Source: Sedimentisphaerales bacterium
Lineage (GTDB): Bacteria; Planctomycetota; Phycisphaerae; Sedimentisphaerales; SM23-30
Reading direction: 5' to 3'
Assembly (NCBI GenBank): GCA_016930855.1
Contig: JAFGFX010000055.1
Location: forward strand, 1-47,786
DNA: 47,786 bases
The position numbers and the translations under genes were made by a program. Below are positions 12,032 to 17,069 of this stretch, in pieces. The notes under the pieces were generated by a model that saw only the letters and a program-made list of their open reading frames with translations, did no database searches and had not been told where the DNA came from. Position 1 is the first letter of the stretch. Each line of letters opens with the position of its first letter.

Positions 12032-13957
12032 ATGTCGCTCGGTAAGCCACAAGAGTACGTAGAACTGGTAACGAAGGCCCAGGGTGGCGATATCGACAGT
12101 CTGGACCAGTTGGTTTTGCTGGTGCGAAATCCGCTGAAGTCCTATGTGTTTCGGCTGACGTTGCATGAGGACCTGACCCAGGACATAGTGCAGGAGACGT
12201 TGTTGGAGATGTTCAAGGTGCTGGGAAAATTGAACCGGGCGGACCGCCTTTGGCCCTGGTTGTGCAAGATAGCGCTGAACAAGGTCCATCGCCATTATCG
12301 CACGGAAAACCGCCGTAAAACGATACTGAAAGAGCGGATAGAGTATATCCCCATGTCCAGCCAGCAGGAGAAGGGACTCTCCGAATTGGTCGGCCAGGAG
12401 CTTCGGCAGGTGGTCCTGGAGGCGATGAGTCGGTTGAAATTGCGGCAGCGGGAGGTGCTGGCCCTGCGCTGCTACGAGAACCTGGAATATGCCGATATCG
12501 CCGAAGTCATGAAATGCACGGAGTTTAACGCCCGGGTGATGTTTTTCCGGGCCAAGAAGGCCCTCCAGAGACAGCTTTCGCGGAACGGATTCGGCAAGGG
12601 GGCCCTGCTGGGGGCCCTGGTGATCTTTGGCAAGCTGACCGCCCCGAGTCAGGCGTCCGCCCTGAAGCTCTCGGTGGCATCGGCCAGCCTGAAGGTCGGC
12701 GCCGCGGCCAGCGCCGTGGGCTTCGCCGGCTCCGCCGGTGGACTGACCACGATCGCGGCCACGGGGATCCTGACCCTGGGGACGGCCTTGATACTGCCGG
12801 CCCTGCCGGAATCCTGGCCCTTTGGACCGGACGCGGCGGCACCGACCACCCACGCCCAGGCGGATGCCGCCGCGTCCGCCTACGAACAGTACTGGTACTA
12901 TTATCCCCAGTCGGTTCCCGGCCCGGTGATGTTGCGCTATTTGACCACGACCTCCGCCTCGGATAAGGATAAACCGTTCTGTCAGTGGATGCAGAACGAC
13001 TACGGCAATTATTACTACGATCGGCCGAACCGGAGATTGCTGATTCGCAATTATCGCGTCTGGCGGCTCGACGGCCGGGTCTGGCGCCTGCCGACGGATT
13101 CACCGGAACTATGGAGCTTCCTGGACCAGGTGGAAGGGAGCCAAGAATCCTTGGCGCCGATTTCCTACGATGCCTCGGGCAGCGGCTTACTGGTCGCCCT
13201 GACCCGCGAGAAAGGGGCCGAGCCCGCCTACGAGCGGCTGCATCTGCCGCCCAATTTATTGGACGAGTTGTGGTTTCGGTACAACTGGCCCACGCCGGTC
13301 CGGGTCGAGGACCAGCGAAGCCTGCTGCATCAGCGGGGATGGTGCTGGATCGTGATTTCGGGACAGATTGCCGGTGAACCGGTTTCCGGAGTAGGGAGAA
13401 TGCCCTTTGTCTACGATGCCTACAAGAGCCATCCGCCTTATTTGCAGTTGGCCATCTCCGACCGGTTGCAGATCGTGGACACCCCGGCGGCAGCGGCCAT
13501 CCGGGATGCCGACGGGCAGGTGTTGGCGGCCTGCCCGTCGGAGAGTTTTTGGGCCGGATTCTGCCGGCCCTGGATGGGCCTGCATACCCTGGATCTGATC
13601 CGCCGGGATGCCGCCGCCCAGCGGATTGCCTTCCAAACCGTCATCCGGAACGGAGACGATGCCGGCCGGGTGAGTCTCCATCCGCCGCAGGGCCAAATCG
13701 ACTATGAGATCGACATGACGAACGACTGGATCAATTCGATCACCTTCGAATTTGAGCGGGACGGTGGGGTGCGCCGGGGGGAACTGCATTTTGAATATCT
13801 GGGAGAGACAGATCCGGTCGGCGCCGGATATACCGAACCACAGATTCGCATTCCGGATGCGGATTCCCTCTGGGAGCGACCCGGTCTGATGTGGTTGGTA
13901 TATCTGGCGGAGGGCAATGTCGCCCGGCGGGACGCGAACCCGCCGGCGGGTCGTTGA
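12032..13957 (+). CDS. ECF-type RNA polymerase sigma factor fused to a membrane segment and large C-terminal domain
   Basis: 641 residues, over three times the size of a normal ECF sigma factor. Residues about 20-95 are sigma region 2 (DLTQDIVQETLLEMFKVLGK, then WPWLCKIALNKVHRHYR) and about 120-185 are region 4 (MSRLKLRQREVLALRCYENL, ADIAEVM, ARVMFFRAKKALQR). Then comes a glycine/alanine-rich hydrophobic stretch at about 222-258 (AAASAVGFAGSAGGLTTIAA...LILPALP) that could cross the membrane once. The remaining 370 residues, rich in Y, W and D, match no family I recognise and would lie outside the cytoplasm. No separate anti-sigma gene is adjacent, so the C-terminal part may hold the sigma domain inactive at the membrane; that is inference. 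Confidence 0.82.
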   Translation: MSLGKPQEYVELVTKAQGGDIDSLDQLVLLVRNPLKSYVFRLTLHEDLTQDIVQETLLEMFKVLGKLNRADRLWPWLCKIALNKVHRHYRTENRRKTILKERIEYIPMSSQQEKGLSELVGQELRQVVLEAMSRLKLRQREVLALRCYENLEYADIAEVMKCTEFNARVMFFRAKKALQRQLSRNGFGKGALLGALVIFGKLTAPSQASALKLSVASASLKVGAAASAVGFAGSAGGLTTIAATGILTLGTALILPALPESWPFGPDAAAPTTHAQADAAASAYEQYWYYYPQSVPGPVMLRYLTTTSASDKDKPFCQWMQNDYGNYYYDRPNRRLLIRNYRVWRLDGRVWRLPTDSPELWSFLDQVEGSQESLAPISYDASGSGLLVALTREKGAEPAYERLHLPPNLLDELWFRYNWPTPVRVEDQRSLLHQRGWCWIVISGQIAGEPVSGVGRMPFVYDAYKSHPPYLQLAISDRLQIVDTPAAAAIRDADGQVLAACPSESFWAGFCRPWMGLHTLDLIRRDAAAQRIAFQTVIRNGDDAGRVSLHPPQGQIDYEIDMTNDWINSITFEFERDGGVRRGELHFEYLGETDPVGAGYTEPQIRIPDADSLWERPGLMWLVYLAEGNVARRDANPPAGR

Positions 13958-14074: not shown

Positions 14075-15676
14075 TTGAATCGGGTAGGGAGAAAAGCATT
14101 TTTTGGGATCGCGGTCTGGTGTCTGGCGACACCATTCCTCATCCTCGCCGTGGACAGCAAGGGGGTCGAAGGGATTGAACCGCCGATGCCGATTGCCCAT
14201 TGGCGGTTGAACGAGTCCGACGGATCGGTGGCGGCCGACGCTACCGGTCTGGCGGACGGCGTTTTGGGGGGCAATCCCCGGTGGCAGCCGCACGGCGGAC
14301 GGATCGGGGGCTGCCTGGAGTTCGACGGGACGGGCGATTACGTCGATTGCGGCGTCAACAACCTGTTCCAGATTACTGGTCCGATCACCGTGTGCGCCTG
14401 GGTGCGGGCCTGGGGTTTCAGTGGGGAGGGCCAGACGATTCTCGCCAAGGGCACGACCGCCTGGCAATTGGAGTGTTACAATCCGGCCGATCATGCCTGC
14501 CGCTGGATCTGCAACGGGCTGACCGGCCCCAACGGGGGCATCTTGCAGGCGACCCAATCCCTCGACGATGGCCAATGGCACCATGTCGCCGGCGTGTACG
14601 ACGGGACGCATATGTACCTATACCTGGACGGTCAGCTCGATGCCTCCCAGGAGGCCGCCGGCTCGATCCAGACCAATAGCGCCCCGATCTGGATCGCTTC
14701 CAACTCCCTGGCGACCGATCGGGAATGGTTCGGCAGGATCGACGACGCCCGCATCTATGATTGCGCCCTGATGGCGGACCAGATCAAGCTGCTGGCGCAT
14801 CGGACGATTCACGTGGACGGCGACGGCGGCGATGACGAACAGCATGACGGCAGCAGCCGGTCCGAGGCGTTCCGCACCATTCAAAAGGGCATCGACGTCA
14901 GCGCCGACGGCGATACGGTGCTGGTCTGGCCGGGGATCTACAGCACGATCGGCGAGGAAGTGATCATGTTCCACGGCAAGGCCATCACGGTCCGCAGCGC
15001 CGAGGACCCGGCCATCCTGGAGGCGTGGAACAATTATGTCGCCGTATTTCACTCGGCGGAGACCCGCCAGAGCGTCCTGGAGAACTTCGTCATCACCAAC
15101 GCCATCGGGGGGATATTTTGTCTGGACGCCTCGCCGACCCTGCGCCACCTGACCGTGGTGAACAACGGCATCGGCCTGGAGGCCTGGGGTCCGTCGGTCC
15201 CCTTGGTTCGCAGCAGCATCTTCTGGAAGAACGTGTATGGGGACGTCTTCAATTTCTCCAGCCTGTGCGACGTGCAATACAGTTGCCTGGAGCGGGGACA
15301 CGAAGGCCAGGGCAATCATTCCCTGGCGCCGGGTTTCGTCAACGACAGCAGCCCGAATCCCTATGCCCGCGATTATCACCTGCGTTCCCAGCGCGGCCGC
15401 TTTTTGCCCGAGGCGATGGGCGAGGATCAGGGCATTTGGATCCTCGACGACGTCTCGAGCGCCTGCCTGGACCAGGGCGATCCGGAGGTCCGCCCCGAGC
15501 GCGAACCGTCGCCGAACGGCGGCCGGGTGAATATGGGGGCCTACGGCAACACCCCCTATGCCAGTCGCAGCGACTGGACGCTGCCGGGCGACATCAACCA
15601 GGACGGCATCGTCAATCTGCCGGATTACGCTATTATGATCCGGCACTGGCTGGAATCCTTCGGGTGGTATGACTAG
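14075..15676 (+). CDS. Secreted LamG-domain / right-handed beta-helix protein with C-terminal dockerin-like repeat
   Basis: 533 residues from a TTG at 14075 (GAAAGG about 10 bases before). Residues 1-26 form a signal peptide. Residues about 38-250 are a LamG/concanavalin fold (AHWRLNES, LEFDGTGDYVDCG, ITVCAWVR, GQWHHVAGVYDGTHMYLYLDG). Residues about 258-480 read as a right-handed beta-helix (EAFRTIQKGIDVSADGDTVL, then VENFVITN-type rungs). The C-terminus holds one calcium-binding dockerin half-repeat, DINQDGIVNLPD (506-517), then YAIMIRHWLE. Such proteins are usually surface or extracellular glycan-binding proteins. It follows the sigma-factor fusion by 117 bases. The ligand is unknown. Confidence 0.8.
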   Translation: MNRVGRKAFFGIAVWCLATPFLILAVDSKGVEGIEPPMPIAHWRLNESDGSVAADATGLADGVLGGNPRWQPHGGRIGGCLEFDGTGDYVDCGVNNLFQITGPITVCAWVRAWGFSGEGQTILAKGTTAWQLECYNPADHACRWICNGLTGPNGGILQATQSLDDGQWHHVAGVYDGTHMYLYLDGQLDASQEAAGSIQTNSAPIWIASNSLATDREWFGRIDDARIYDCALMADQIKLLAHRTIHVDGDGGDDEQHDGSSRSEAFRTIQKGIDVSADGDTVLVWPGIYSTIGEEVIMFHGKAITVRSAEDPAILEAWNNYVAVFHSAETRQSVLENFVITNAIGGIFCLDASPTLRHLTVVNNGIGLEAWGPSVPLVRSSIFWKNVYGDVFNFSSLCDVQYSCLERGHEGQGNHSLAPGFVNDSSPNPYARDYHLRSQRGRFLPEAMGEDQGIWILDDVSSACLDQGDPEVRPEREPSPNGGRVNMGAYGNTPYASRSDWTLPGDINQDGIVNLPDYAIMIRHWLESFGWYD

Positions 15677-15870
15677 TACCGCCAGTCGTATGGGGACAAG
15701 GGACAAAGGGCGGTTCCCGGTCCTGGTCATTTCCCTTCCTGAGTCCGATCCGAATTCCATTCCCGCAATCGTTCCATTTATATTGTATCGTTATGCGCCG
15801 AATGGTTCGCGAACCGGGGCGGCGATCCGGACGTGCCGCGGTGGGATCATTGATATTCGGGCAGAACGCA

Positions 15871-15954
15871 GAGAAAAATCGTTTGGGCAGACGGGCAAAT
15901 TGGGGCAGCCGGGGGGGGCAATTTGGCCGGCTGGGGTCCCGAACGATTTTTCTC
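15871..15954 (+). ncRNA. Candidate structured RNA or repeat: 17-bp stem enclosing a possible pseudoknot
   Basis: Bases 15871-15887 (GAGAAAAATCGTTTGGG) pair with 15938-15954 (CCCGAACGATTTTTCTC) over 17 positions, the only non-Watson-Crick pair being a U-G wobble. Inside, CAAATTG (15896-15902) matches CAATTTG (15919-15925), and CAGCCGG (15906-15912) matches CCGGCTG (15927-15933). These two 7-bp helices interleave, which is H-type pseudoknot topology, or two alternative folds. It lies in the 391-base gap between the LamG gene and dus, 114 bases before the dus ATG. It could be a dispersed palindromic element, a regulatory leader or a terminator, though there is no T-run after it. Nothing else is evident in the gap. 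Confidence 0.5.
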
Positions 15955-16067
15955 GTCGCCGATCCACTGTCATATATCCAGTTACTTTGTGTTGCACTTG
16001 GAAGTTGAATCCGCTAAATGATTTTCTTGCCGGGCAGGTATCCGCCAGACGCTGGCAGGCGGGAACA

Positions 16068-17069
16068 ATGATACGACTGGGACACATCGAGTTGGCCGAG
16101 CCGGTGATCCAGGCGCCGTTGAGCGGCTATTCGGACTGGGCCATGCGGCGAATCGCCCGGCGGTTTGGGGCGCCGCTAACCTTTTCCGGGTTGATGCTGG
16201 ACCGGTCCGTCCTGCATCCGAGGGCCTGGCGGCAGGGGGTTTATTACCTGGACGCCGACGAAGCGCCGATCGGCGGGCAACTGCTGGGCAACGATCCGGA
16301 GACGATGGCCCGGGCGGCCCGGGTCATGCAGGAGAAGGGCTATGATCTGATCGACATCAATTTCGCCTGCCCGGCGCCCAAGGTGATTGCCCGCCGCCGG
16401 GGCGGATACCTCTTGCAGCAGCCCGCCCTCGCCGGCGAGATCGTCCGCCAGGTCCGCGGCGCCGTCTCGCTGCCGGTCACCCTGAAGCTGCGCAGTTCGT
16501 TCTATCAGGGCGACCAGGAAAAGGAGCACTTCTGGCGGATCTGCGAGCAGGCGGTCGCTGCCGGCGTCGAGGCCCTGATCGTCCACGGCCGCTCGGTGGA
16601 GCAGCGCTACCGCGATCCGGCCGACTGGCGGATCATCCGGCAGGTCAAGCGGCGCTTCGCCGACACGTTGGTGTTCGGCAGCGGTGATTTGCACACCGCC
16701 GAGGATGCCCTCGAACGGCGGCAAGACAGCGGCGCCGACGGCGTGATCATCGCCCGGGGGGCGATCGGCAATCCCTGGATCTTTCCGGAACTGCGGGCCC
16801 TGCTGGCCGGATCAGCCAAGCCGCCACCGCCCGAACCGGCGCAGGTCGGCCGCATCATGGAGGACCATTTCGACCTGGTGCTGCGGCTGCACGAACGGCG
16901 CAAGGTGATCGCCTATTTCCGCAAGTTCTGCGTAGGCTACTGCCGCCGCCACCCCCGCCGCCGGCGGGTGTTGCCGATCCTGCTGGCGGCCCGCACCGAG
17001 GATGAGCTCCGCGAGGCGATCCGGAAATGGTTTTACCAGGATTCCGACACGGCCGCCGACGACACGTGA
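16068..17069 (+). CDS. dus: tRNA-dihydrouridine synthase
   Basis: 333 residues from the ATG at 16068. The open frame runs upstream to 15669, but that part is intergenic and includes the stem element. Dus enzymes use FMN and NADPH to reduce uridines in the tRNA D-loop. The TIM barrel starts with LAEPVIQAPLSGYSDWAMRR. DINFACPAPKVIARRRGGYLL carries the catalytic cysteine, ALIVHGRSVEQRYRDPADW the FMN-site H and R, and GADGVIIARGAIGNPWIF the phosphate site. The family consensus around the cysteine is INxGCP; here it is INFACP. It ends 81 bases before the convergent methyltransferase gene. Which Dus subtype (A, B or C) is not clear. Confidence 0.9.
   Translation: MIRLGHIELAEPVIQAPLSGYSDWAMRRIARRFGAPLTFSGLMLDRSVLHPRAWRQGVYYLDADEAPIGGQLLGNDPETMARAARVMQEKGYDLIDINFACPAPKVIARRRGGYLLQQPALAGEIVRQVRGAVSLPVTLKLRSSFYQGDQEKEHFWRICEQAVAAGVEALIVHGRSVEQRYRDPADWRIIRQVKRRFADTLVFGSGDLHTAEDALERRQDSGADGVIIARGAIGNPWIFPELRALLAGSAKPPPPEPAQVGRIMEDHFDLVLRLHERRKVIAYFRKFCVGYCRRHPRRRRVLPILLAARTEDELREAIRKWFYQDSDTAADDT

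What the first reader, a model, noticed from the sequence alone, without database searches (positions are those of the whole stretch)
15871..15954. 84-nt element with a 17-bp closing stem around two interleaved helices (possible pseudoknot)
Seen: 15871-15887 pairs with 15938-15954 along all 17 positions in RNA; inside, two perfect 7-bp helices interleave (15896-15902 with 15919-15925; 15906-15912 with 15927-15933). Chance is a poor explanation for three perfect helices in 84 bases. It stands upstream of dus. It may be a structured leader, an sRNA, or a mobile palindromic repeat.
Basis: seen in the sequence. Interest (0 to 1): 0.58.

Follow-up and report, generated by a model that had tools for sequence, protein, structure and literature searches.

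The report
Mobile DNA element carrying conserved RNA hairpin
The 84-base hairpin is the core of a small jumping-DNA element scattered through this bacterium's genome, and related bacteria carry the same hairpin, kept folded by paired mutations, inside jumping elements with quite different ends.

Summary
The three helices exist as described, but the pseudoknot is private to this copy: its second helix is complete in 1 of 124 distinct copies, against 75 of 124 for the rival nested helix. The real fold is one long nested hairpin with a bulged GGG and a G-rich apical loop.

It is the core of a ~215-bp MITE. Related Phycisphaerae genomes carry it (31 of 161 in the order). Copies have terminal inverted repeats and target duplications: 10 of 38 perfect 8-bp with ISL3-type ends, 4 of 11 perfect 3-bp with IS30-type ends. 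Insertion sequences with those ends were found, and the hairpin model has no match in those loci. A third end type fills one genome with about 98 copies. The window copy is IS30-type, with an eroded left end.

The hairpin diverges less than both flanking spacers in six of seven groups. G-U pairs far outnumber A-C mismatches (223 to 46), pointing to + strand RNA. Mobility is well supported; the RNA role is inferred. No preference for gene orientation was seen, so a dus leader is unlikely.

The parts
15871..15954 (+). Conserved hairpin core: outer 17-bp stem, inner stem of 13 pairs in this copy, bulged GGGU on the 3' side, G-rich apical loop
   Evidence: Pairing and energy; 93% pairing over 124 distinct copies; covariation
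15990..16014 (-). Right terminal inverted repeat, IS30 type (TGTTGCACTTGGAAGTTGAATCCGC on the + strand)
   Evidence: No mismatch at the 20 fixed positions of the end pattern; same end type, 1 mismatch, on IS30 transposase loci in G103
15807..16014 (+). Probable extent of the whole element; the left inverted repeat is eroded and its limit is inferred from the spacing in complete copies (25-nt end, 39-nt spacer)
   Evidence: Spacing in complete copies; no left end found in the window

Best explanation
A partly eroded copy of a non-autonomous transposon (MITE, ~215 bp) of the IS30 type. Shown: dispersed copies; inverted-repeat ends shared with transposase-bearing IS30 and ISL3 insertion sequences; target duplications of matching length; a hairpin kept by compensatory change and mostly less diverged than its spacers; the same hairpin between unlike ends. 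Inferred: copies are moved in trans by transposases that recognise only the ends (about 0.9). Inferred more weakly: the hairpin works as + strand RNA (about 0.6), and my first choice of mechanism is that in transcripts running through the element it is a folded unit recognised by a host protein or RNase through its bulged GGG and G-rich loop, much as NEMIS and ERIC hairpins are described to act in mRNA (about 0.3). The confidence given is for the MITE with a constrained hairpin core, not for the RNA mechanism.
For: 16 full copies, one cut copy and longer or decayed copies in the own genome. 8-bp duplications perfect in 10 of 38 ISL3-type copies (shuffled partners 0.1%), 3-bp perfect in 4 of 11 IS30-type copies (shuffled 5.3%). 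Same ends on transposase loci. Nested hairpin: 92.9% of cells paired, 85 double changes, covariation 0.256 against at most 0.085 slid. G168 has a different but complementary outer stem. Hairpin diverges less than both spacers in 6 of 7 groups. G-U cells 223, A-C cells 46. Unpaired loop and bulge G's mostly kept in 97-122 of 124 copies. NEMIS/ERIC precedent: passages of PMC2229807.
Against: No IS30 transposase was found in the window's own genome, 84% complete. The window copy lacks a recognisable left end, so its own duplication cannot be tested. A tree-aware null leaves one pair significant among all column pairs, so independent compensations are few. Copies were found by their hairpin, which favours intact hairpins in every comparison. 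No expression data.
Confidence: 0.8

Rival explanations
1. The hairpin is a small non-coding RNA gene acting in trans, a passenger that rides on whatever transposon ends are at hand.
For: Same core between IS30-type, ISL3-type and a third type of ends; about 3 changes of end type on the hairpin tree; conserved unpaired G's.
Against: No promoter was demonstrated: the scan gave 3 consensus-like sites in 551 bases against 0.4 in shuffles, two of them over the A- or T-rich stem. Some copies are decayed.
Confidence: 0.3
2. The hairpin is an intrinsic terminator, working in both directions, that insulates the element and its neighbours.
For: A-tract and T-tract flank the G+C-rich part; a run of 4 or more T's lies in the last 14 bases of 115 of 130 cores.
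Against: The terminator scan found none there (its loop limit of 8 would miss this hairpin). G168 has no T-tract, and six copies of G118, G057 and others have it broken. Convergent neighbours are the rarest class, 13 of 71. A terminator does not need the conserved loop and bulge.
Confidence: 0.2
3. The hairpin matters as DNA: a strand-specific single-stranded hairpin or cruciform used in transposition or replication.
For: Palindromic in DNA; both strands fold; strand asymmetry could also reflect one DNA strand.
Against: Ends and duplications fit transposases acting at the inverted repeats, and loci with the full insertion sequences have no such hairpin. The same core serves different transposase types.
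Confidence: 0.15
4. No selection on structure: template switching between the arms repairs the palindrome and imitates compensatory change.
For: Few independent events remain in the tree-aware test.
Against: Such repair should be strand-symmetric and remove mismatches, yet G-U exceeds A-C 223 to 46 (121 to 46 without the one largely fixed U-G pair), and the unpaired G's are conserved.
Confidence: 0.1
5. A structured leader of dus.
For: Lies upstream of dus on the same strand.
Against: A transposon end lies between it and dus; copies sit beside genes in every arrangement, 71 examined.
Confidence: 0.02

Closest known systems
Bacterial MITEs with folded transcripts: Correia/NEMIS and ERIC/RU-1 (PMC2229807, passages read)
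   Same: About 100-200 bp, inverted-repeat ends, target duplications, dispersed, transcripts predicted to form long stem-loops
   Different: Here one compensated core with conserved unpaired G's is shared by elements with ends of unrelated transposase types, across an order
IS30-family insertion sequence (ends)
   Same: End type of the window copy matches IS30 transposase loci in G103 with 1 mismatch at the fixed positions; 3-bp duplications in 4 of 11 copies
   Different: No transposase gene; hairpin absent from the IS30 loci
ISL3-family insertion sequence (ends of most relatives)
   Same: Ends match ISL3 transposase loci in G103, G072 and G136; 8-bp duplications
   Different: No transposase gene; hairpin absent from the ISL3 loci; not the end type of the window copy
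REP palindromes, GTAG- and CGTC-tagged (PMC3733652, passages read)
   Same: Multi-copy intergenic palindromes, reported also from Planctomycetes
   Different: REPs are 20-40 bp; this is an 84-nt core within a ~215-bp element with transposon ends

Membership tests
MITE | Terminal inverted repeats shared with a transposase-bearing element | tested here: met
   for the family; the window copy keeps the right end only
MITE | Target-site duplication | tested here: met
   Family level: 10 of 38 and 4 of 11 perfect, far above shuffled partners; third type 1 of 12. Not testable for the window copy, whose left end is lost
MITE | Short, multi-copy, dispersed, no transposase gene | tested here: met
   16 full copies in the own genome; about 98 in G142; ~215 bp
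IS30-derived MITE (window copy) | IS30 transposase in the same genome | tested here: not met
   No NF033563 match in G000, which is 84% complete; present in G009, G001, G103, G136. Called IS30-type by its ends, not as a proven derivative
ISL3-derived MITE (relatives) | ISL3 transposase and same ends in the same genome | tested here: met
   G103, G072 and G136; other genomes not shown: 6 of 18 searched have a PF01610 match
H-type pseudoknot RNA | Two interleaved helices conserved in homologues | tested here: not met
   Second helix complete in 1 of 124 copies; 53% paired in its larger part on 33 copies
Any Rfam 15 family | Match to a covariance model | tested here: not met
   None at gathering score in the window, none at E up to 5 for 15700-16100
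REP element | 20-40 bp palindrome | tested here: not met
   84-nt core; size from PMC3733652
REP element | Associated RAYT transposase | not tested
   RAYT genes were not searched for
NEMIS/ERIC-like RNA function | Processing of co-transcribed mRNA at the hairpin | not testable with these tools
   Needs RNA data

The most novel reading that the evidence does not exclude
A transposase-independent mobile RNA module: one structured RNA, found almost wholly within one order of Phycisphaerae, has been packaged between the ends of at least two unrelated transposon families (IS30 and ISL3) and probably a third, and has spread to about 100 copies in one genome, because the RNA itself does something for the element or the host.
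Probability: 0.35. Interest if true: 0.75.

Novelty: new variant of a known kind. Interest (0 to 1): 0.55.

Why it matters
MITEs are usually read as deletion derivatives whose interior is disposable (general knowledge). Here the interior is less diverged than its spacers in six of seven groups and is shared by elements with different ends, which asks what a short RNA can offer unrelated transposons or their hosts. The strand asymmetry and the constant G-rich loop and bulge make that testable. No description of it turned up in eight library searches; the library holds open-licence papers only.

Tried and rejected
Pseudoknot: rejected. dus leader: rejected. Known RNA family: none. tRNA: none. 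A full insertion sequence carrying the hairpin: none in the 14 loci around ISL3 hits or the 6 around IS30 hits. ISAs1 as mover of the third end type (a recalled resemblance): no transposase found in G142; that mover stays unassigned. A first gene-context count hinted at an orientation bias, but in 28 of 49 copies an ORF ran over the hairpin; the codon-scored recount of 129 elements, 71 with both neighbours called, shows none. G016 has two divergent copies 8.6 kb apart; the ORFs of that stretch show no evident mobile system, judged by eye only. Viral contigs: 0 matches to the pattern. Plasmids: no match. The one Clostridia contig matching the genome contigs pattern gave no model match.

Rows dropped and limits: cores of L113 and L199 (cut) and identical cores were left out of the 124-core alignment. 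For the count of end-type changes five genomes (G055, G016, G143, G116, G168) were left unlabelled, and all others except G000, G009, G012 and G142 were labelled ISL3 by default, some on one end only. R1 genome searches scored at most 28 or 11 candidates per genome, so copy numbers there are floors, and they can count both strands of one palindrome.

Full report
Observation. No tRNA or Rfam family is present.

A repeat. A 104-bp query finds 16 full copies in the window's own 3.9-Mb, 406-contig genome, one more cut by a contig end, at least five longer copies whose two halves are split by roughly 60-80 extra bases in the apex, and decayed pieces. The flanks align beyond the hairpin to common ends, GCGGATTCAA.....AAGTGCAACA on the left and its inverse on the right, giving an element of about 215 bp. 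In the window the right end is 15990-16014; no left end is recognisable. The right end stops 53 bp before the dus start at 16068.

Relatives. A covariance model (R1) from 33 copies of four genomes finds the core in 31 of 161 genomes of the order, 21 of 84 genera; in 11 of 397 sampled from the class, ten of them in the same order; and in 1 of 392 sampled from the phylum, the window's own. The named contigs found by pattern are Planctomycetota MAGs, many labelled Sedimentisphaerales or Phycisphaerae, apart from one Clostridia contig that R1 does not match.

Structure. On the 33-copy MAFFT alignment the nested hairpin pairs at 92.9% of cells, with 85 cells changed on both sides and a covariation score of 0.256, against at most 0.085 for slid partners and 0 of 500 shuffles. 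The pseudoknot's second helix pairs at 53% in its larger part. On 124 distinct cores pairing is 93.0%; the claimed helix is 7/7 in one copy, the nested rival in 75. G168, a distant copy, has a wholly different yet complementary outer stem. The unpaired G's of the loop and bulge are mostly kept in 97-122 of 124 copies. G-U cells outnumber A-C cells 69 to 7 on 33 copies and 223 to 46 on 124, as expected if the + strand is the folding RNA; one largely fixed U-G pair supplies 102 of the 223, and without it the count is 121 to 46. A tree-aware null of my own leaves one pair significant among all column pairs, and none outside the structure. That tree was built from the same columns, so the test is conservative, and the number of independent compensations is small.

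Mobility. The 130 copies of 28 genomes fall into types by their ends: IS30-type in G000, G009 and, by eye, G012; ISL3-type in most others, in G001, G099, G106, G089 and one G072 copy only as a variant seen mainly on the right; and a third type in G142. Five genomes (G012, G055, G143, G016, G168) had no end assigned in the mismatch scan, though G168 has a perfect 23-bp inverted repeat. ISL3 transposase loci in G103 and G072 carry these ends on both sides, and loci in G136 carry them or a variant. An IS30 transposase locus in G103 carries the window's end type on both sides with one mismatch each, and G009's IS30 carries ends like that genome's elements. Duplications: ISL3-type 10 of 38 perfect and 18 of 38 with at least 7 of 8 (shuffled partners 0.1% and 1.3%); IS30-type 4 of 11 perfect 3-bp (shuffled 5.3%); G142 1 of 12 perfect 8-bp. 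R1 has no match in the loci around the transposase hits. G142 has 131 sites of its end and 98 of the hairpin arm at up to 3 mismatches, with 0 in the reversed-pattern controls.

Constraint. In the seven genome/type groups with at least three complete copies, hairpin divergence was lower than both spacers in six (in G103 the right spacer was slightly lower) and lower than both end repeats in six (the exception is G056's left repeat). Copies were found by their hairpin, so this comparison leans towards intact hairpins.

Context. Of 129 elements, 71 had a called gene on both sides: both genes against the element 21, divergent 20, both with it 17, convergent 13. Gene calls are by a simple codon score, not a gene finder. 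This speaks against a leader of a particular gene and gives no support to a terminator.

Mechanism and comparison. The mobility part is ordinary MITE biology and well supported. The RNA part is inference: the best guess is a folded unit in read-through transcripts recognised through its G-rich loop and bulge, as NEMIS (RNase III) and ERIC (RNase E) hairpins are described to act (passages of PMC2229807). What had no counterpart in the library searches made is one compensated core shared by MITEs with ends of unrelated transposase families.

Noticed in passing
L025, L026, L028, L029, L030 (own genome): Longer copies carry roughly 60-80 extra bases in the apex; similar sequence (GGGCAATTCGCCGCGG and neighbours) also occurs in L017, L037 and L064, so a second repeat family seems to have entered the element.
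   Followed up: partly
L291 and other G142 loci: One relative (G142) carries about 98 hairpin arms and 131 end repeats of a third type whose transposase was not found.
   Followed up: partly
window 15669-17069 +: A 466-aa open frame runs from upstream through the element into dus; the Dus domain match lies in the part from 16068, so an automatic gene call could extend dus wrongly.
   Followed up: partly
window 14075-15676 +: Neighbouring gene has a Laminin_G_3 domain and a weak, below cut-off, dockerin match at its C-terminus.
   Followed up: no
window 12032-13957 +: A 641-aa protein with sigma-70 region 2 and 4 domains at its N-terminus and a long uncharacterised C-terminal part.
   Followed up: no
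L177:940-2301, L183:789-2138: Divergent transposase frames; that of L177 has weak ISL3, MULE and Mutator similarity. An IS30-type end of the window's kind lies next to the one in L177.
   Followed up: no
L296 (G016:C1:27500-42500): Two strongly diverged copies of the hairpin in opposite orientation 8.6 kb apart on one contig, without recognised ends.
   Followed up: partly
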